DNA of 64,000 nucleotides from Capillimicrobium parvum (GTDB taxonomy: Bacteria; Actinomycetota; Thermoleophilia; Solirubrobacterales; Solirubrobacteraceae). Under the pieces are notes generated by a model. It was not told where the DNA came from, did not search any database, and worked only from the letters and a program-made list of their open reading frames with translations. Positions 6,891 through 17,779 of the stretch are shown in pieces (position 1 is the stretch's first letter; each line of letters opens with the position of its first letter). The DNA is taken from NCBI RefSeq assembly GCF_021172045.1, contig NZ_CP087164.1, forward strand, positions 124,001 to 188,000. Reading direction: 5' to 3'. Position numbers and translations under genes: made by a program.

Positions 6891-7590
6891 GGAAGGTCAG
6901 GAGGTTCAGGGCTCCGTGCTCGGGCAGGTGCCGGACCGCGCCTTCCAGCCCGTCGAGGACCTCGTCGGGCAGGGCCTCGAGCGCATCGTTGGGCAGCGGT
7001 TTGAGGAACACGCCCTCGCGGGCGATCTCGCGCAGCCCGGCGCTGTGCCCGAGGGCCGCCATGTCGCGGGCGTCCATCAGTCGCTTCGTGCCGAAGCGCT
7101 CGCCGCGCTCGGCGACGTCGTGAAGATCGTGGATCAGGCCCATCTCGAGCGCCACCAGGCGGTGCAGCGAGCGCGGGTTCTGCAACGACACGTGCACGAG
7201 CGTGCCCGGCACGACGTGGGCCTGCGCGACGCGCCGAAGGACGGCCTCGGGATCGGCGACCTCGTGCAGGACGTTGGTCAGGACGACGTGGTGGAAGCGG
7301 CCGAGCCGCTCGAGCGCGGCGAGGTCGTCGAGGTCGCCGGCGACGAACTCGCAGCGCGGCAGCGCCCTGGCTTCGGCACGGGCCAGGTACTCCGGCGAAC
7401 GGTCGACGCCGGTGACGCGCCGCCCGTCGCCCGCCAGCAGCGTCGTCATCAGGCCGGTCGCGCAGCCGAGCTCCAGGACGCTCTCGTGCGGGTGCAGCCA
7501 GCGCCCGACCCGACGGCCCGTCGCGCGGGTGTAGCGGGCGTCGAAGTCGCGGTCCGGGTCGTAGATCGCGGTGTAGTCGATCGCGGTCAT
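6880..7590 (-). CDS. Class I SAM-dependent methyltransferase B
   Basis: 236-residue methyltransferase. SVLELGCATGLMTTLLAGDGRRVTGVDRS is motif I with the acidic residue that binds the ribose of SAM; FVAGDLDDL and FHHVVLTNVLHEVADP are later motifs. A GVFLKPLPNDAL segment near residue 200 matches GWFLKVLPNSMM in methyltransferase A, suggesting an old duplication inside this operon. ATG at 7590 overlaps the upstream stop (ATGA). It probably acts on the same glycan intermediate or an adjacent position; substrate unknown. Confidence 0.85.
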   Translation of the reverse strand: MTAIDYTAIYDPDRDFDARYTRATGRRVGRWLHPHESVLELGCATGLMTTLLAGDGRRVTGVDRSPEYLARAEARALPRCEFVAGDLDDLAALERLGRFHHVVLTNVLHEVADPEAVLRRVAQAHVVPGTLVHVSLQNPRSLHRLVALEMGLIHDLHDVAERGERFGTKRLMDARDMAALGHSAGLREIAREGVFLKPLPNDALEALPDEVLDGLEGAVRHLPEHGALNLLTFRAG

Positions 7591-8513
7591 CGCACCAGGA
7601 CGGGTCGCAGCTCGGCCGTGGCCAGGATCGACTGCTTGAACTGCGCGAGACCGTGGCTGACGCGCAGCGGCGGGCCGCCGGGCTCGGTCGTGCGGCCGAG
7701 GTCGAGGACCCGGACGCCCTCGGCCAGGGCTCGCTCGATCACGCGGAACGCGAGCAGGTTCATCGGCGAGCGCTCGAGCCGGTGGCCCGCGTCGCCCCAG
7801 GCCTGCACGTACCAGCGGTCGGCGGCGACGACCATGACGAGCGCGGCGGCGCACGGCGCGCCCTCGTGCTCGAGGACGAAGCAGCGCACCGCCGCCGGGA
7901 GCGCGTCGCGGACGCGCTCGAAGTACTCCCGGCTCAGGCTGAGCGCACGGCCGCGGTCGCGCCGATTGGCGTGCACGAGGGCGTAGCCGGTCGTGAGGTC
8001 CTGGTGCTCGGCGAACGCGAACGGCGCCCCGAGCGCGTGGCGCAGCGCGCGGCGGGCCGGCGATCTCAGCGCGGCGAGGTAGGCGTCCGCGGTCGGGAAG
8101 CGGCTGAGGTCGACGGCGTGGTTGAGGTCGGCCTCGGCGACCGTGAAGCCGCGGTTGAGCAGCCCGAACTGCACGAGCGCCCCGGTCGGCGACCAGGACG
8201 CGGGCGGGCAGCGGAAGGTGAGGCGCTCGGCCCGGAGGCCGCCGAGCTCGGCGAGCCAGTGGTCGATCGCCGCCTCGACGTGGGCGGGCGTCTCGCGGGG
8301 CCGGGCGAAGTCCGGTCCGGAGCACGGCGACGAGAAGCCGGCGGTGAAGGCGCCCTCGTGCAGCACGCCGGAGAGCACGCCCACCGTGCGGCCGCCCTCG
8401 TCGTAGGGCAGCGCGAGGATCGCGTCGCCGGGGGCGGCGTTGAGCGCGTGGAAGGCGGCGCGGTTGAAGAGCGAGACGAAGGGGAGGTCTGTCCGGGGCG
8501 TGCAGATCGTCAT
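7587..8513 (-). CDS. GNAT/FemAB-like acyltransferase
   Basis: 308-residue protein with a C-terminal acetyltransferase-like region: CFVLEHEGAPCAAALVMVVAADRWYVQAWGDAGHRL followed by NLLAFRVIERALAEGVRVLDLGRTTEPGG, the layout of FemAB/BioF2-like GNATs that transfer acyl or aminoacyl groups during envelope synthesis. It is 12 bases downstream of the ketoisomerase and overlaps the next gene by ATGA. In known Fuc3NAc pathways the amino group is acetylated by a left-handed beta-helix enzyme (FdtC); none is visible here, so this protein may do the N-acylation. That is inference. Confidence 0.7.
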   Translation of the reverse strand: MTICTPRTDLPFVSLFNRAAFHALNAAPGDAILALPYDEGGRTVGVLSGVLHEGAFTAGFSSPCSGPDFARPRETPAHVEAAIDHWLAELGGLRAERLTFRCPPASWSPTGALVQFGLLNRGFTVAEADLNHAVDLSRFPTADAYLAALRSPARRALRHALGAPFAFAEHQDLTTGYALVHANRRDRGRALSLSREYFERVRDALPAAVRCFVLEHEGAPCAAALVMVVAADRWYVQAWGDAGHRLERSPMNLLAFRVIERALAEGVRVLDLGRTTEPGGPPLRVSHGLAQFKQSILATAELRPVLVR

Positions 8514-8525
8514 GGCGTGCGGCGC

Positions 8526-8969
8526 TCAGGCGTCCGGCGCGGACCGGGCGACGGTGCGGAACTCGCCGAGGTCGCGGATGTAGTCGGCCTCCTCGAAGAT
8601 CTCCGACGCCAGCACCATGCAGACCGAGCCGGAGGAGAAGTTGTCGATCTCGCGCCACACCATGCGCGGGACGTAGAGCCCGGCGTAGGAGCGGTTGAGG
8701 TGGAAGCGGTGCTTGATCTCGCCGTCGTCGAGCACGACGTCGAAGCTGCCCGACATGGCGATGATCACCTGCTCGAGGTCGCGGTGCGCGTGGCCCCCGC
8801 GCTCGGCGCCGCCCGGCACGTCGTACAGCCAGTACACGCGGCGGATGTCGAACGGGATGTGGACCTGGCCCTCGACGACGCTGAGATTGCCGCGTGGATC
8901 GTTGACGCGCGGGAAGGCGACCATGTGACAGGCGGCGAGGCCGGAGGGGGGAAGCATGGTGGCGGCCAC
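8526..8969 (-). CDS. FdtA/QdtA/WxcM-like dTDP-4-oxo-6-deoxyglucose 3,4-ketoisomerase
   Basis: 147-residue cupin expected to move the keto group of dTDP-4-keto-6-deoxyglucose from C4 to C3, the step before 3-amination. Seen: NDPRGNLSVVEG near the N-terminus, RVYWLYDVPGG, then GGHAHRDLEQVIIAMSGSFDVVLDDG, whose histidines belong to the catalytic pocket, and LYVPRMVWREIDNFSSGSVCMVLAS. I chose GTG at 8969; ATG at 8957 (residue 5) is equally possible. First gene of the seven-gene operon; no dTDP-glucose synthase or 4,6-dehydratase (RmlA/RmlB) is in the window, so the donor must come from elsewhere. Confidence 0.85.
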   Translation of the reverse strand: MAATMLPPSGLAACHMVAFPRVNDPRGNLSVVEGQVHIPFDIRRVYWLYDVPGGAERGGHAHRDLEQVIIAMSGSFDVVLDDGEIKHRFHLNRSYAGLYVPRMVWREIDNFSSGSVCMVLASEIFEEADYIRDLGEFRTVARSAPDA

Positions 8970-11091: not shown

Positions 11092-11315
11092 GCCTCCTGG
11101 CGACAGGGTGCGGTGGTGCACCCTTCACCGCGCTGGTCGCCGTCGGCACCCCTGGTGAACCCTCGGGGGCCCGCCTCCTGGCGACAGGGTGCGGTGGTGC
11201 ACCCTTCACCGCGCTGGTCGCCGTCGGCACCCCTGGTGAACCCTCGGGGGCCCGCCTCCTGGCGACAGGGTGCGGTGGTGCACCCTTCACCGCGCTGGTC
11301 GCCGTCGGCACCCCT
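11092..11315. repeat. 81-bp tandem repeat, 2.8 copies, ending at a -10 box
   Basis: Units begin at 11092, 11173 and 11254, each with GCCTCCTGGCGACAGGGTGC; the third is cut after 62 bases. Between 11072 and 11091 there is a degenerate end of a further copy. Every unit holds AGGGTGC-GGTGGT-GCACCCT (first at 11105-11124), a 7-bp stem with a 6-base loop. The period is 27 codons, so both strands stay open across it, but I see no convincing start or protein. The last repeated base, T11315, is the first base of TAGACT, the likely -10 box of the next gene. Confidence 0.95.
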
Positions 11316-11330: not shown

Positions 11331-12725
11331 ATGGCCGTCGCCCCCCTGACCGCCGCCTTCGGCATCCCGAGCCAGGTCGAGTCGATCGGAGCAGTCGCCG
11401 GACTCGCCGCCATCCTCGGACTCGCGGTGCTGTCCATGCTCTACTTCGCGCAGGCGCGCGAGCTCAAGCGCCTGCGCGAGTGGGCCGGGCGCGGGCCGGA
11501 GCGGGCGGCCGAGCTGCAGGAGCGCGTGAGCAGCAGCCCCGTTCCACGGCGACCGCCCGCCGCGCAGGCGCGCGGCGCCGTCTCGCCCGCGACGCCCGCG
11601 GGTCAGGCCGTCCAGGGCCAGGTCCCGGGCGCCGCCGCCCCGCGCCCGGCGACCGGCAGCGCCGCCGCGGCCGCGGCCGGAGCGACCGCCGCCACCGCCG
11701 CCCCGGGCCAGCCCGCTACGGCGCCCAACGGCCAGACGGGCGCGCCCGGGGCCCCCGCGGCGCCGTCCGGGCCCGGCGCGCCGGTGCAGCCCGCCCAGGC
11801 GCCCCCGGCGGGCCAGCCCGGCCAGCCCAGTCCCGCCGCTCCGGGCCAGCGTGGCCAGCCCGCTCCCGTCGCTCCGGGCCAGCCCGGCCAGCCCGCTCCC
11901 GCCGCTCCCGGCCAGCCCGGCACCGATCAGCCCACCACCGCATCCCCGGCGGCCCGCCCGGCCACGCCCGCCCCGGGTCAGCCCGCGCAACCCGCCCAGC
12001 CGGTGCGGCCCGCCACGGCCGGCGCCCCCGCGCCCGCCTCGACGGCGGCCCGCAGCGCCGTGCCCGGCGCCCGCACGGCCGCCGGTGCTGCCGGCGCCGC
12101 GGCCCCCGGCGCGCGCGCTGCCGGCCGGCCCCGGGCGGCCGCGCCCCTGCGCACCGGCACGCCCTCGGCCACCGTCCCACCACGGCGAGGCGGGGGCGCA
12201 GGCACCGGCGGCGGCGACGACGGCGACGGCCGCTCGCGCCGGGGCCTGCTGCTGATCGGCGGCGCGTTGATCGCCGTGATCGTCGCGGTCGTCTTCGCCA
12301 TCACCCAGCTCGGCGGCGGCAGCGACGGCAATAGCAGCGGCGGGACGCAGGCGAGCACGCAGACCGGCAACGCCATCGCCCCCACGCGCACGACCCAGCC
12401 GGCGAGCCAGGCGTCCGACAGTTCGCGCGCGAAGACCGTCGTCGGCGTGCTGAACGGCACGACGGTGCCGGGGCTGGCCCGCTCGGTCGCCGACAAGCTC
12501 GAGGCGCGCAAGTACCGCATCGGGACGGTCACGAACGCGCCGGACCAGCAGCGCTCCGCCACCCAGGTGGCCTACCAGCCCGGCAGCGTCCGCATGGCCC
12601 GCGACGTCGCTCGCATCATCGACGTCGGGTCCGACGCCGTCGTGCCCATCGACGAGGTGACGTCGGCCACCGCGGGCCCCGATGCGCTCGTCGTCGTGAC
12701 CGTCGGCTCCGACCAGTCCCGGTAG
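11331..12725 (+). CDS. Membrane protein with proline/alanine-rich linker and LytR_C domain
   Basis: 464 residues. A membrane segment near residues 20-40 (AVAGLAAILGLAVLSMLYFA) is followed by a charged stretch, about 250 residues of low-complexity Pro/Ala/Gly/Gln with GQPGQPAP-like repeats, a second membrane segment (LLLIGGALIAVIVAVVFAI, about 305-323), and a C-terminal domain starting KTVVGVLNGTTVPGLARSVADKLEARKY that matches the LytR/CpsA/Psr C-terminal domain. Such proteins sit at the cell envelope, sometimes near wall-polymer ligases. No LCP catalytic domain is present. ATG 11331 follows the 81-bp repeat array. Confidence 0.75.
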   Translation: MAVAPLTAAFGIPSQVESIGAVAGLAAILGLAVLSMLYFAQARELKRLREWAGRGPERAAELQERVSSSPVPRRPPAAQARGAVSPATPAGQAVQGQVPGAAAPRPATGSAAAAAAGATAATAAPGQPATAPNGQTGAPGAPAAPSGPGAPVQPAQAPPAGQPGQPSPAAPGQRGQPAPVAPGQPGQPAPAAPGQPGTDQPTTASPAARPATPAPGQPAQPAQPVRPATAGAPAPASTAARSAVPGARTAAGAAGAAAPGARAAGRPRAAAPLRTGTPSATVPPRRGGGAGTGGGDDGDGRSRRGLLLIGGALIAVIVAVVFAITQLGGGSDGNSSGGTQASTQTGNAIAPTRTTQPASQASDSSRAKTVVGVLNGTTVPGLARSVADKLEARKYRIGTVTNAPDQQRSATQVAYQPGSVRMARDVARIIDVGSDAVVPIDEVTSATAGPDALVVVTVGSDQSR

Positions 12726-12899: not shown

Positions 12900-13655
12900 A
12901 TGACCTCCGGCCCGCTCGAGCTGCCCCGCCGCAGCGCGAAGCCCCGGTCGACCGGCATCACCCACGTCCTCGACCGCGGCCTCTCCCTACGCCAGATCGA
13001 CGACCTCGTCGAGGTCTGCGGCGACAGCGTCGACATCGTGAAGCTCGGCTGGGGGACAGCGCTGGCCACCGGCAACCTCCAGCCGAAGCTCGACCGGCTG
13101 CGGTCGCACGGCATCACGGCCGTCCTCGGCGGGACGCTCACCGAGCTCGCCATCCGCCAGGGCCGGGTGGACGGGCTCGTCGCCTGGCTGCACGAGCTGG
13201 GCCTCGAGCACGTCGAGGTCTCCGATGGCACGATCTCGCTCGATCCCGAGGAGAAGCGAGGGCTCATCGCCCGTTTGGCGAAGGAGTTCACCGTGCTCAG
13301 CGAAGTGGGATCCAAGGACGCCGAGGAGATCATGGCCCCGTACCGGTGGGTCGAGCAGATCGAAGCCGAGCTCGCGGCCGGGGCGTGGAAGGTCATCGCC
13401 GAGGCCCGGGAGACCGGCACGGCCGGCATCTACCGCCCGGACGGCGAGGTGCGCAAGGGGCTGATCGACGAGATCGCCCACGCGATCGACCCGGCGAAGC
13501 TGCTGTTCGAGGCGCCGCGCAAGGACCAGCAGGTGTTCTTCCTGCGCCGCTTCGGGCCGGACGTCAACCTCGGCAACATCGCTCCGGACGAGGTGCTCTC
13601 GCTGGAGACGCTGCGCCTCGGGCTGCGCTCGGACACGATGGAGCTGGGCGGATGA
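12900..13655 (+). CDS. comA: Phosphosulfolactate synthase (ComA family)
   Basis: 251-residue TIM-barrel enzyme expected to add sulfite to phosphoenolpyruvate to give (2R)-phospho-3-sulfolactate, first step towards sulfolactate or coenzyme M. Seen: GITHVLDRGLSLRQIDDL, DIVKLGWGTAL, VLGGTLTELAIRQ, HVEVSDGTISL, VLSEVGSKD, KVIAEARETGTAGIY and NLGNIAPDEVLSLETLRLGLRSDT, motifs in ComA order and spacing. Some bacterial and plant homologues of this family have no proven activity, so the reaction is probable, not certain. Its stop overlaps the start of a histidine phosphatase (ATGA). No comB, comC or other sulfonate gene is visible. Confidence 0.85.
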   Translation: MTSGPLELPRRSAKPRSTGITHVLDRGLSLRQIDDLVEVCGDSVDIVKLGWGTALATGNLQPKLDRLRSHGITAVLGGTLTELAIRQGRVDGLVAWLHELGLEHVEVSDGTISLDPEEKRGLIARLAKEFTVLSEVGSKDAEEIMAPYRWVEQIEAELAAGAWKVIAEARETGTAGIYRPDGEVRKGLIDEIAHAIDPAKLLFEAPRKDQQVFFLRRFGPDVNLGNIAPDEVLSLETLRLGLRSDTMELGG

Positions 13656-14188
13656 TCCTGTTGGCGCGCCACGGCGAGACGCCGTACAACGCCGAGCGCC
13701 GCTTCCAGGGCCAGGGCGACGTGGCGCTCAACGCCCGCGGCCTCGAGCAGGCCCGCGAGCTCGCCCAGCTCGCCGTGCAGGAGCCGCTCGCGGCGCTGTA
13801 CGCGAGCCCGATCCGTCGCGCCCGCGAGACCGCGGAGATCGTCGCCGAGGCCGTCGGGCTCGAGCCGCGCTTCGACCCGCGCTTCGCCGAGACGGACGTC
13901 GGCGACTGGCAGGACCTGCTGTTCGATGACGTCGAGCGCGAGCATCCGGACCTGTGGGCGGCCTGGCAGGCCGGCGGCGCGTGGAGGTTCCCGGGCGGCG
14001 AGTCCCTCGCAGAGCAGCAGGAGCGCGTGATCGCCGGGCTCGTCGACGTCACGCAGCGCGGCGAGCTGCCGGCGCTCGTCGTCTGCCACCGGGGCTCGAT
14101 CCGCGTCGCCCTCTGCCACACCCGCAACGAGGGCCTGGAGGCGTTCCAGCAGATCGCGATCCCGAACGGGGCCCTGATCCGGCTGTGA
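13652..14188 (+). CDS. Histidine phosphatase family protein coupled to comA
   Basis: 178-residue phosphoglycerate-mutase-like phosphatase. ILLARHGETPYNAERRFQGQGD holds the RHGE motif with the phospho-accepting histidine; ALYASPIRRARETAEI, ETDVGDWQDL and LVVCHRGSIRVAL (second catalytic histidine) complete the active site. It starts inside the comA stop (ATGA), so the two are made together. The known phosphosulfolactate phosphatase, ComB, is a different fold; this protein could replace it and release sulfolactate. That role is inferred only from coupling. Confidence 0.85.
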   Translation: MILLARHGETPYNAERRFQGQGDVALNARGLEQARELAQLAVQEPLAALYASPIRRARETAEIVAEAVGLEPRFDPRFAETDVGDWQDLLFDDVEREHPDLWAAWQAGGAWRFPGGESLAEQQERVIAGLVDVTQRGELPALVVCHRGSIRVALCHTRNEGLEAFQQIAIPNGALIRL

Positions 14189-14206
14189 GCCATGCCGGCC
14201 CCGTTC

Positions 14207-14449
14207 GGCGGCCCGTCGTCGTGAGACCCTGCGGGTCCTCACACTCGAGCGTCGCGTCCCTCGGCGGCCCGTCGTCGTGAGACCCTGCGGGTCCTCACAC
14301 TCGAGCGTCGCGTCCCTCGGCGGCCCGTCGTCGTGAGACCCTGCGGGTCCTCACACTCGAGCGTCGCGTCCCTCGGCGGCCCGTCGTCGTGAGACCCTGC
14401 GGGTCCTCACACTCGAGCGTCGCGTCCCTCGGCGGCCCGTCGTCGTGAG
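14207..14449. repeat. 56-bp tandem repeat, 4.3 copies, ending in a start codon
   Basis: Units begin at 14207, 14263, 14319, 14375 and 14431, each opening GGCGGCCCGTCGTCGTGAG; spacing is exactly 56 bases with almost no divergence. Each full unit contains GTGAGACCC-TGC-GGGTCCTCAC, a stem of nine pairs with one bulged C. The fifth copy is cut after GTCGTGAG, and its GTG is the start codon at 14445. The array fills nearly all of the 256 bases between 14188 and 14445. Because 56 is not a multiple of 3 a coding role is unlikely. Confidence 0.95.
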
Positions 14450-16250
14450 CACGACCCGCCTGCGGGTGGGGGTGTTCGTCCTCCTTGTCCTGGCCACGTT
14501 CGGCGCGTTCTTCGTCGTGCAGCGCATCAAGCGCGAGCCGGCCGACGTGCGCTTCGCCCGCATCACGCCGCTGTTCTCGCCGAACGGCGACGGCCGCCTG
14601 GAGCGCGCCCGCGTGAGCTTCCAGCTGCGCACGGCGGACACGATCTCGCTGCGCGTGATCGACCGGGCCGGCGACGTCGTGCGGACGCTGATCGCCGACC
14701 GGCGTGTACCCGCCGGCACGCGGGTGCGGGCGCTCTGGAACGGGCGTGACGACGCGGGCCGCGTCATGCCCGACGGCGTCTACCGCTACCGGGTCACGCT
14801 GCAGGACCAGGGCCGCGCGGTCCCGCTGCCGCGCGGGGTGCGCATCGACACGAAGCCGCCGCGCCCGCGCGTCCAGCGCATCGGCGGCGACAACCGCGGC
14901 CCTGACATCCTGCCCCGGCCCGACGGGCGCCCGGTGACGATCCGCTTCTACAACCCCGCGCGCAACCAGCCGACCGAGCTCATGGTCTACCGCACGAACC
15001 CCGGCACGGCGATGGTGTTCCGCACGGTCGTCCCGGGCGGGCGGCGCTCGTTCGTCTACGACGGCCGCGACGCCGCCGGCCGGCCGCTGACCCCCGGCAC
15101 GTACGTCGTGGCGCTGCGCACGCGCGATCTGGCCGGCAACGCCGGCACGGCGCCCGGGCGCCTGCCGCCGAAGGCCCAGTACGGCCAGCGCCTGTCCGGC
15201 CATGGCGGCATCACCGTTCGCGACCTCGCGGCGCAGCCGCCGCTCGAGCCGACGATCACCGAGTCCGCGGCGACCTTCGGCGTCGACGCCCGCGGGCGGA
15301 ACTTCGCCTGGTCGGTGCGTCGCGCCGGCACCGGCCGGCCGTACCGCGAGGGCCGCCCCCGCACCCTGCCCGTCGTGAAGATCGACGCGCCGAAGACCCC
15401 CGATTCCGGCCTGTACCTCTTCGAGGCGCATACGCGCGACCACCAGACGCAAGTCCCGTTCCCCGTCCAGGCGGTGAAGACCCAGAAGGTGCTCGTCGTG
15501 CTGCCGGCGATCACCTGGCAGGGCACGAACCCGGTGGACGACGACGGCGACGGCTGGCCCAACACGCTCACGGACGGGCTGCCGGTGCGCCGCGAGCGCG
15601 TCTTCGCCAACGGCCTGCCCGAGGACCTCGTCCAGCGCGTCGCCCCGCTGCTCATCCACCTCGACCGCACCGGCCTGCGCTACGACCTCACGACCGACCT
15701 GGGCCTGGCGACGAACGAGGGCCCCCGGCTCGAGGGCCATACCGGCGTCGTGCTCGCCGGCGACATGCGCTGGCTGCCGGCCGCACAGCAGCGCGCGCTG
15801 CGGCGCTTCGTGCGCAACGGCGGCAAGGTCGCCACGTTCGGCATCGACTCGCTGCGCCGCCAGGTCCGCGTCACGCCGAACCGCCTCGTCGACCCCACCG
15901 CGCCCGCCCGCACCGACGCGTTCGGCGCGACGCTGCGCCCGCTCGTCCGGGCCCCCGGCACGACGCTGACGATCTTCAACGACGAGATCGACCTGTTCGC
16001 CGGCAACGTGTTCGGCGGCACCGGCGTCTTCTCCGGCTACGACAGCTACGAGGAGACGGAGTCGGTCGGCGCCGGCGCGAAGGTCGTGGCGAGCGCGGTC
16101 ACCGAGTCCGGGCGCAAGGTGGTCGTCGCGGAGCGCCTCGGCAAGGGGCTGATCATCCGGTTCGGGCTGCCGCAGCTGCCGCAGCGGCTCGGCCGGCCGG
16201 GCAACGAGAGCGAGCTGGTGCGGAGGACATGGACGCTGCTCTCCCAGTGA
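14445..16250 (+). CDS. Membrane-anchored extracellular protein with FlgD-Ig-like domains
   Basis: 601 residues. One N-terminal anchor (VGVFVLLVLATFGAFFVV), then ITPLFSPNGDGRLERA, a hallmark of FlgD_ig-type beta domains, with a second such module ending GRDAAGRPLTPGTYVVALRTRDLAGNAG. The remaining part, including VLVVLPAITWQGTNPVDDDGDGWPNTL and GGKVATFGIDSLRR, resembles the N,N-dimethylformamidase-beta-like region of some actinobacterial surface proteins. The GTG start at 14445 lies in the last copy of the 56-bp repeat; no Shine-Dalgarno is visible. It overlaps the O-antigen ligase gene by 22 bases, so a role at the surface alongside exported glycan is plausible. Confidence 0.75.
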   Translation: MSTTRLRVGVFVLLVLATFGAFFVVQRIKREPADVRFARITPLFSPNGDGRLERARVSFQLRTADTISLRVIDRAGDVVRTLIADRRVPAGTRVRALWNGRDDAGRVMPDGVYRYRVTLQDQGRAVPLPRGVRIDTKPPRPRVQRIGGDNRGPDILPRPDGRPVTIRFYNPARNQPTELMVYRTNPGTAMVFRTVVPGGRRSFVYDGRDAAGRPLTPGTYVVALRTRDLAGNAGTAPGRLPPKAQYGQRLSGHGGITVRDLAAQPPLEPTITESAATFGVDARGRNFAWSVRRAGTGRPYREGRPRTLPVVKIDAPKTPDSGLYLFEAHTRDHQTQVPFPVQAVKTQKVLVVLPAITWQGTNPVDDDGDGWPNTLTDGLPVRRERVFANGLPEDLVQRVAPLLIHLDRTGLRYDLTTDLGLATNEGPRLEGHTGVVLAGDMRWLPAAQQRALRRFVRNGGKVATFGIDSLRRQVRVTPNRLVDPTAPARTDAFGATLRPLVRAPGTTLTIFNDEIDLFAGNVFGGTGVFSGYDSYEETESVGAGAKVVASAVTESGRKVVVAERLGKGLIIRFGLPQLPQRLGRPGNESELVRRTWTLLSQ

Positions 16251-17779
16251 TCCACGCGGCCACCGACCTCGGCGACGCCCTTGACCGGCTCGGCGTCGTC
16301 GCCGTCGCGGTGCTCGCCGCGGCCGCGCTGCTCGCCCCCGGGCTGCGGGCGCGGGCGGCCGCGTCGCTCGGCGCGCTGGTCCTCGTGCCGGTCCTGCTGC
16401 TCGCCGACATCTGGGACTCCTCGCAGGTGGCGAGCCTGCGCGACCGCCCCGCGCTGTTCGCCGGCGCTGCGGTCGTGGCGATCCTGGTGGTCGCCGCGCT
16501 CGCCCTCCTCGTCGCTCGTCGCCCCCTGCTGCTGCCCCTGCTCGCGGTCGCGGCGCTCCCGTTCCGCATCCCGATCTCCGCGGGCGGCGACACCGCGAAC
16601 CTGCTCGTGCCGCTGTACCTCGTCATCGCGGCGGGCGTGCTCGCCACCGGCGTCACGCGTCTGCGCGCCGAGGACGACGATGCGCCGTTCCGCCCGCGGG
16701 CGCTCGAGTGGCTGCTGTGCGGCGCGGTCGTCCTCTACGCGATCCAGGCGGTCTACTCCGACGACTTCGCCCACGGGCTGCAGAACGTCGTCTTCTTCTA
16801 CGTGCCGTTCGCGCTGCTCTTCGGCCTGCTGCGCGAGGTGCCCTGGACGCAGCGGCTGGCGCTGCAGTGCCTCGGCGTCCTCGCCGCGCTCGCGGCCGTG
16901 TTCGTCTGCATCGGGTTCGTCGAGTACGCGCGCAAGGAGCTGCTGCTCAACCCGAAGCTCGTCGCGGCGAGCCAGTTCCAGACGTACTTCCGCGTCAACT
17001 CCCTGTTCTTCGACCCGAACATCTACGGGCGCTTCCTCGTGACCGTGATGCTCGGGATCACGACGGTGATCCTGTGGACGCGGCGCACCCGCGACGTGCT
17101 CGCCGGCGTCGCGCTGCTCGCGCTGCTGTGGGCGGGCCTGGTCCTGAGCTTCTCGCAGTCGAGCTTCGCCGCCCTGCTGGCCGGCCTGGCCATCCTGGCC
17201 GGCCTGCGCTGGGCGTGGCGCTGGACGATCGCGGCGGTGGGGGTCGCCGCGGTGGTCGCGGTGGGCATCGTGGTCCTGTTCCCGAGCGCGATCAACCTCG
17301 ACCTGGGGTCCTCGAAGTCGGCCGACAAGGCGACGAGCGGCCGCCTGGACCTCATCAAGGGCGGGGGGCGCCTGTTCGCCGACCGGCCCGTGCTCGGCTG
17401 GGGCTCCGGCTCGTTCCCGGCGGTCTACCGGCGCGAGGAGCAGGTCTCCTCGGAGAAGGCGACGACGGCCTCGCACACGATCCCCGTCACCGTGGCCGCC
17501 GAGCAGGGCGTGATCGGGCTCGCCGTCTATCTGGCGCTGCTCGTCGCCGCCCTGGCCCGGCTGTTCGCCGGCGCCCGGGCGCTGCCGCTGCGCGCCTACG
17601 TCGCTGCCGCGTTCGTCGCGCTGCTGGTGCACACGATGCTCTACGCGGCGTTCCTGGAGGATCCGCTGACCTGGGCGCTGCTCGCGGTCGGCACGGCGGC
17701 CGCGGTGCTCCCGCGCCCGGGGGAGGGCGACGAGGCGGCGGCGCCCGGCGTAGCCTCCGCGCACGATGACGCTGACTGA
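16229..17779 (+). CDS. O-antigen ligase/polymerase (Wzy_C) family membrane protein
   Basis: 516-residue polytopic protein with about 11-12 hydrophobic helices and a large periplasmic loop. The loop contains SGRLDLIKGGGRLFADRPVLGWGSGSFPAVYRRE, the W-G-x-G-S-F pattern of Wzy_C proteins that polymerise or ligate undecaprenol-linked glycans outside the membrane. VLSFSQSSFAALLAGLAIL is the preceding conserved helix. It starts 22 bases inside the previous gene and overlaps the GlcD-like gene by 14. It fits the glycosyltransferases and dehydratase in the first 24 kb. Confidence 0.85.
   Translation: MDAALPVIHAATDLGDALDRLGVVAVAVLAAAALLAPGLRARAAASLGALVLVPVLLLADIWDSSQVASLRDRPALFAGAAVVAILVVAALALLVARRPLLLPLLAVAALPFRIPISAGGDTANLLVPLYLVIAAGVLATGVTRLRAEDDDAPFRPRALEWLLCGAVVLYAIQAVYSDDFAHGLQNVVFFYVPFALLFGLLREVPWTQRLALQCLGVLAALAAVFVCIGFVEYARKELLLNPKLVAASQFQTYFRVNSLFFDPNIYGRFLVTVMLGITTVILWTRRTRDVLAGVALLALLWAGLVLSFSQSSFAALLAGLAILAGLRWAWRWTIAAVGVAAVVAVGIVVLFPSAINLDLGSSKSADKATSGRLDLIKGGGRLFADRPVLGWGSGSFPAVYRREEQVSSEKATTASHTIPVTVAAEQGVIGLAVYLALLVAALARLFAGARALPLRAYVAAAFVALLVHTMLYAAFLEDPLTWALLAVGTAAAVLPRPGEGDEAAAPGVASAHDDAD
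17751..17756 (+). promoter_or_regulatory. Possible leaderless -10 box inside the ligase gene
   Basis: TAGCCT ends 9 bases before the ATG at 17766 with no Shine-Dalgarno. If used, the GlcD-like gene has its own start inside the upstream coding region. Confidence 0.35.

What the first reader, a model, noticed from the sequence alone, without database searches (positions are those of the whole stretch)
12900..14188. Phosphosulfolactate synthase fused in translation to a histidine phosphatase
ComA product needs dephosphorylation, normally by ComB, an unrelated enzyme. Here a ComA-family gene overlaps a histidine-phosphatase gene by ATGA and no ComB is seen. The pair could be an alternative route to sulfolactate, a sulfonate made or excreted by this bacterium.
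Basis: partly seen in the sequence, partly recalled or inferred. Interest (0 to 1): 0.7.

Follow-up and report, generated by a model that had tools for sequence, protein, structure and literature searches.

The report
ComA–phosphatase gene pair, optional partners
A soil actinobacterium carries overlapping genes for a sulfonate-making enzyme and a phosphatase; the pairing recurs in three bacterial families, but the phosphatase also stays at the same spot in close relatives without the sulfonate gene, so it is unlikely to be a dedicated partner, although it may still finish the reaction here.

Summary
Observation confirmed. ComA (PF02679; 12900-13655) overlaps a histidine phosphatase (HP, PF00300; 13652-14188) by ATGA, and no ComB (PF04029) is found in the 5.95-Mb genome. 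These are two overlapping genes, not a fusion.

ComA→HP adjacency recurs in 29 Thermoleophilia genomes (13 genera, 3 families) with orthologous HPs. In sister clades, ComA lies in CysH–CysC–Sat–TauE operons, which supports real phosphosulfolactate synthesis.

HP is the resident of a conserved envelope-polysaccharide locus (LytR_C – HP – FlgD-Ig – Wzy). Fourteen genomes keep HP there with no ComA found anywhere, including two of three other species of the window's own genus and four single-contig genomes. Fourteen others have ComA there without HP. Within the locus the two occur independently (Fisher p=0.8). Genome-wide, ComA carriers nearly always have an HP of this clade (41/43 in the window's family), but not the reverse. 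Lack of ComB is not diagnostic: a whole ComA-bearing family lacks both ComB and an adjacent HP.

Best reading: ComA makes phosphosulfolactate; HP is an older phosphatase of the locus that may moonlight as its phosphatase. No activity was measured. The more striking side finding is a FAD–fumarase–ComA–sulfate-reduction operon in relatives.

The parts
12900..13655 (+). comA-family gene (PF02679), putative (2R)-phospho-3-sulfolactate synthase, 251 aa
13652..14188 (+). histidine phosphatase (PF00300), 178 aa, ATGA overlap with comA; catalytic R6, H7, R56, E80, H146 present
11331..12725 (+). LytR_C-domain protein, conserved upstream member of the envelope locus in the window's family
14205..14449 (+). 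56-bp x 4.4 perfect tandem array with a hairpin-like core, between HP and the next gene
14445..16250 (+). FlgD_ig / DMFA2_C-like protein, conserved downstream member of the locus
16229..17779 (+). Wzy_C O-antigen ligase-like protein, conserved downstream member
8526..8969 (-). FdtA/WxcM-like sugar ketoisomerase, part of the polysaccharide neighbourhood
7587..8513 (-). Acetyltransf_6 (GNAT/FemAB-like), same neighbourhood

Best explanation
ComA condenses sulfite with phosphoenolpyruvate to phosphosulfolactate (inferred from family, conserved residues, and sulfite-supply operons of sister clades; not shown). The overlapping HP is a phosphomonoesterase of the histidine phosphatase fold that is primarily a resident of a conserved envelope-polysaccharide locus. 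ComA is the optional member of that locus, lying between LytR_C and HP. In ComA carriers HP probably also hydrolyses phosphosulfolactate to sulfolactate (inferred), helped by translational coupling; it is not a phosphatase dedicated to that substrate, because it persists with an unchanged active site where ComA is absent.
For: ComA identity and conserved residues. Adjacency in 29 genomes of f1, f4 and f11, with the f11 HPs sister to f1/f4 HPs (support 0.89). HP clade tracks ComA in f4 (2/2 vs 0/10) and f11 (8/8 vs 0/1) although all f4 genomes keep the downstream FlgD_ig gene. 41 of 43 f1 ComA carriers have an HP of this clade. HP persists in the locus without ComA in 14 genomes with no ComA found, e.g. 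L260 = G145 of the own genus, 78% identical HP. Catalytic columns are invariant with and without ComA. HP model matches small-phosphoester phosphatases, best phosphoserine phosphatase PspA, Z 27.5 over 178 residues.
Against: ComA and HP are statistically independent inside the locus (21 both, 14 ComA only, 18 HP only, 15 neither; p=0.8), so moonlighting is not required by the data. Genome counts are not corrected for relatedness. No substrate was tested, and the 14 ComA-only genomes carry at most an unlinked paralogous HP whose neighbours (MIP channel, G6PD) do not suggest sulfonate metabolism.
Confidence: 0.48

Rival explanations
1. HP has an unrelated job in the polysaccharide locus and is merely a neighbour of ComA; phosphosulfolactate is dephosphorylated by another phosphatase or used as such.
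For: HP-only and ComA-only states of the same locus, also within one genus; independence p=0.8; family f9 has ComA with neither ComB nor adjacent HP in 11 of 11 genomes with usable flank; other ComA clades pair with ATP-grasp or ComB instead.
Against: Adjacency also in f11, where the rest of the neighbourhood differs and includes CysH, TauE and fumarase genes in several genomes; co-absence in f4/f11.
Confidence: 0.3
2. One reading: HP is a dedicated replacement for ComB, giving a ComA-HP route to sulfolactate.
For: ComB absent; conserved overlap and adjacency; strict co-occurrence in f4 and f11.
Against: HP retained without ComA in 14 genomes including single-contig ones with the same active-site residues.
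Confidence: 0.15
3. The ComA-family protein is not a phosphosulfolactate synthase here (as for plant HSA32, whose reaction is not known to me).
For: Below the NCBIfam archaeal equivalog cut-off (252 vs 280 bits); Bacteroidota relatives at about 54% identity sit in unrelated contexts.
Against: Sister Thermoleophilia clades encode CysH, CysC, Sat and TauE beside ComA, like the B. subtilis yitCD / yitBA-yisZ operons (PMC517825); residues shared by both solved enzymes are kept.
Confidence: 0.07

Closest known systems
B. subtilis yitCD + yitBA-yisZ (ComB-ComA and sulfate activation; sulfolactate is about 5% of spore dry weight, PMC517825)
   Same: ComA-family enzyme expected to make phosphosulfolactate; in sister Thermoleophilia clades also CysH, CysC, Sat neighbours
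   Different: Neighbouring phosphatase is a histidine phosphatase, not ComB; located in a polysaccharide locus; no PF02615 (ComC-type dehydrogenase family) match in the genome
Methanogen coenzyme M pathway ComA-ComB-ComC
   Same: ComA homology (1qwg)
   Different: No ComB, no Ldh_2/ComC family
Bacterial coenzyme M pathway of Xanthobacter (phosphosulfolactate synthase followed by an aspartase/fumarase-superfamily phosphate-eliminating enzyme; cited in PMC11507031)
   Same: ComA homologue without ComB
   Different: No such neighbour in the window; the class I fumarase genes of f7/f8/f11 relatives are a different family and absent from this genome
Histidine phosphatases PspA, GpgP, PhoE, CobC
   Same: Fold and catalytic residues
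   Different: Below every NCBIfam equivalog cut-off listed, best alpha-ribazole phosphatase 132.6 vs 162.9 bits

Membership tests
ComA family (PF02679) | Curated Pfam score | tested here: met
   291 bits vs 25.2
ComA family (PF02679) | Residues shared by the M. jannaschii and B. subtilis proteins (K48, E82, E106, E135, K139, E168, R170, E204, N223, R239, R243 and others) | tested here: met
   Present in the window protein and mostly invariant in 117 sequences
Archaeal ComA equivalog (TIGR03849) | Curated equivalog score | tested here: not met
   251.9 vs 280 bits
ComA family (PF02679) | Sulfite + PEP to phosphosulfolactate | not testable with these tools
   needs an assay
ComA-ComB sulfolactate system | ComB (PF04029) present | tested here: not met
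   No hit in own genome
Histidine phosphatase superfamily branch 1 | RHG motif and catalytic Arg/Glu/His | tested here: met
   R6 H7 R56 E80 H146 invariant; PF00300 173 bits vs 21.7
Alpha-ribazole phosphatase CobC (TIGR03162) | Curated equivalog score | tested here: not met
   132.6 vs 162.9 bits; ComA-less orthologue 141
Phosphoserine phosphatase PspA (NF045917) | Curated equivalog score | tested here: not met
   95 vs 350 bits, although best structural match
Phosphosulfolactate phosphatase (function) | Hydrolysis of phosphosulfolactate | not testable with these tools
   needs an assay

The most novel reading that the evidence does not exclude
HP is a non-homologous replacement of ComB, and the sulfolactate made by the pair is used in, or decorates, the surface polymer of the envelope locus, giving a sulfonated bacterial envelope.
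Probability: 0.12. Interest if true: 0.7.

Novelty: new variant of a known kind. Interest (0 to 1): 0.42.

Why it matters
If HP hydrolyses phosphosulfolactate, ComB is replaceable by an unrelated phosphatase, and sulfonate synthesis would be predicted in many soil Thermoleophilia, including genomes without comB. The locus comparison also shows why adjacency plus absence of a known enzyme is not enough: the phosphatase stays in the locus of close relatives that have no comA. The ComA operons of relatives (with fumarase and fumarate-reductase-like genes and sulfate-to-sulfite genes) make a possible new sulfonate pathway directly testable.

Tried and rejected
Dedicated pair judged from adjacency alone: rejected after finding HP without ComA at the same locus. 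ComB absence as support: weak, since f9 lacks both ComB and adjacent HP. ComB/HP mutual exclusion: only weak (p=0.03, uncorrected for relatedness) and family-structured. A natural ComA-HP single-frame fusion: none found. Residues in HP that track ComA presence: the best columns are C-terminal ones that also hold alignment gaps, none catalytic. The second-round HP profile was contaminated by shadow frames inside comA; its HP calls were discarded and replaced. Class I fumarase and the Ldh_2 family in the own genome: none; the two long hits of the FAD protein in the own genome are about 40% identical and lie in frames of 583-587 aa, so probably sdhA/nadB (my inference). No paper on a histidine phosphatase acting on phosphosulfolactate turned up in the held library; the Xanthobacter pathway paper is not held.

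Full report
Observation. The window (position 124001-188000 of a 5.95-Mb single-contig genome, estimated 96% complete) carries a 251-aa PF02679 ComA protein at 12900-13655 (+) and a 178-aa PF00300 histidine phosphatase (HP) at 13652-14188 (+), sharing the bases ATGA. They are two proteins with overlapping reading frames, not a fusion; no single-frame fusion was found in the loci scanned. It is the only ComA in the genome, and PF04029 (ComB) is not found, although the control search detects it in reference genomes. The closest named relatives (Conexibacter, Solirubrobacterales) place the window in that group.

ComA. It matches the solved B. subtilis (1u83) and M. jannaschii (1qwg) proteins and keeps the residues they share. 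It falls below the archaeal equivalog cut-off of NCBIfam (252 vs 280 bits), so membership is at family level. Evidence that this clade makes phosphosulfolactate comes from sister families of the class (f7, f8): ComA lies in a run FAD-protein – fumarase alpha – fumarase beta – ComA – PAPS reductase – APS kinase – ATP sulfurylase – TauE, i.e. beside the genes that make sulfite, as in the B. [quoted passage not shown]

HP. Catalytic residues R6, H7, R56, E80 and H146 are present. The model is confident (pLDDT 97.7) and its best solved matches are phosphoserine phosphatase PspA (Z 27.5, 1.2 A over 178 residues) and glucosyl-3-phosphoglycerate phosphatase. All NCBIfam equivalog scores are below cut-off, so its substrate is not assigned by sequence.

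Conservation of the pair. ComA-bearing genomes of the class were examined through their loci. HP follows ComA directly in 29 genomes: 19 of family f1, 2 of f4 and 8 of f11, covering 13 genera (G144 and G164 from the neighbouring coordinates). The geometry varies from a 4-base overlap to gaps of about 100 bases. The f11 HPs form the sister clade of the f1/f4 HPs (support 0.89), so the paired HPs look orthologous across families although f11 neighbourhoods differ (CysH, TauE and fumarase genes in several). In f4 this HP clade was found in 2 of 2 ComA carriers and in none of 10 others, although all of them keep the downstream FlgD_ig gene (G210 has only a 33% hit); in f11 in 8 of 8 carriers and not in the one non-carrier.

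What breaks the simple story. Searching the HP through family f1 gave 66 of 78 genomes at E <= 1e-25, more than carry ComA. The HP loci without adjacent ComA show, in many cases, the same envelope locus: epimerase – LytR_C – HP – FlgD_ig – Wzy, with ComA missing. Fourteen such genomes had no ComA hit at all (G142, G143, G145, G152, G156, G157, G167, G168, G169, G171, G190, G191, G203, G207; absence, whose list of genomes without a match is cut, so the later ones rest on their not being among the matches); G168, G169, G190 and G203 are single-contig assemblies, and G143 and G145 belong to the window's own genus with HPs about 78% identical. In G143 the contig ends about 600 bases upstream of HP, so only the lack of an adjacent ComA and the genome-wide miss can be stated. 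Conversely 14 genomes (G132, G146, G151, G174-G184) have ComA in the locus without HP. Counting the locus states gives 21 both, 14 ComA only, 18 HP only, 15 neither: no association (p = 0.8). The 'neither' class includes f4 genomes in which only FlgD_ig, not LytR_C, was seen within 1.5 kb. At genome level, 41 of 43 f1 ComA carriers have an HP of this clade against 25 of 35 non-carriers (p = 0.005, not corrected for relatedness); the ComA-only genomes carry an unlinked paralogue in other contexts. The ComA label changes about 10 times on the HP tree of the locus, hardly fewer than shuffled labels.

ComB. Absence of PF04029 is not specific: 29 ComA genomes had neither adjacent HP nor ComB, including all 11 of f9 with usable flank, while in f7/f8 ComB is usually present elsewhere. 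A separate deep ComA branch sits beside a real ComB, followed by an ATP-grasp gene in the clearest case (L204; L143 similar), and in G170 such a ComA-ComB pair coexists with the ComA-HP pair.

Reading. The shown facts are the genes, their overlap, the missing ComB, the recurrent adjacency and the independence inside the locus. Inferred: ComA makes phosphosulfolactate; HP is primarily a resident phosphatase of the envelope locus; it may hydrolyse phosphosulfolactate when ComA is present. I put about 0.6 on HP contributing to that step at all (best explanation plus the dedicated version) and 0.15 on it being dedicated. Whether the adjacency was ancestral, with ComA lost repeatedly, or was formed more than once is not settled. 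Whether sulfolactate is excreted, stored or built into the envelope cannot be said; no PF02615 (ComC-type) match is present.

Side finding. The f7/f8 operon suggests a route in which a class I fumarase acts on sulfolactate (an analogue of malate) and the FAD protein on the resulting sulfoacrylate. The FAD protein keeps the His and Arg residues that align with the substrate-binding ones of succinate dehydrogenase (alignment; which positions bind substrate is from general knowledge) but lacks the C-terminal domain. This is a hypothesis; these genes are not in the window, and class I fumarase is absent from the own genome.

Noticed in passing
L066, L083, L140, L146, L151, L152 and other f7/f8 loci: ComA in an operon FAD protein (SdhA/NadB-like, about 405 aa) - class I fumarase alpha and beta - ComA - CysH - CysC - Sat - TauE; possible sulfate-to-sulfopropionate pathway.
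   Followed up: partly
window 14205-14449: 56-bp unit repeated 4.4 times with 100% identity between HP and the next gene; its hairpin-like core GTGAGACCCTGCGGGTCCTCAC also occurs once in another sampled stretch of the genome (L281).
   Followed up: partly
window 11092-11315: 81-bp unit, 2.8 perfect copies, just upstream of the LytR_C gene.
   Followed up: no
L193, L197, L199, L200, L201, L202, L203: Another ComA subclade is followed, mostly with a short overlap, by an ATP-grasp (PylC-like) ligase gene, suggesting ligation of a sulfonated carboxylate.
   Followed up: partly
L204, L143, L130: Divergent ComA - ComB clusters, with an ATP-grasp gene in L204; in L130's genome (G170) coexisting with the ComA-HP pair.
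   Followed up: partly
L055 846-2687 and similar genes in L051, L052: Arylsulfotransferase (PF14269) genes, in two copies in L052 and L055, upstream of the epimerase in some envelope loci with ComA-HP.
   Followed up: no
L184, L185, L191: Very divergent ComA homologues between an MmgE/PrpD gene and a DUF488 gene.
   Followed up: no
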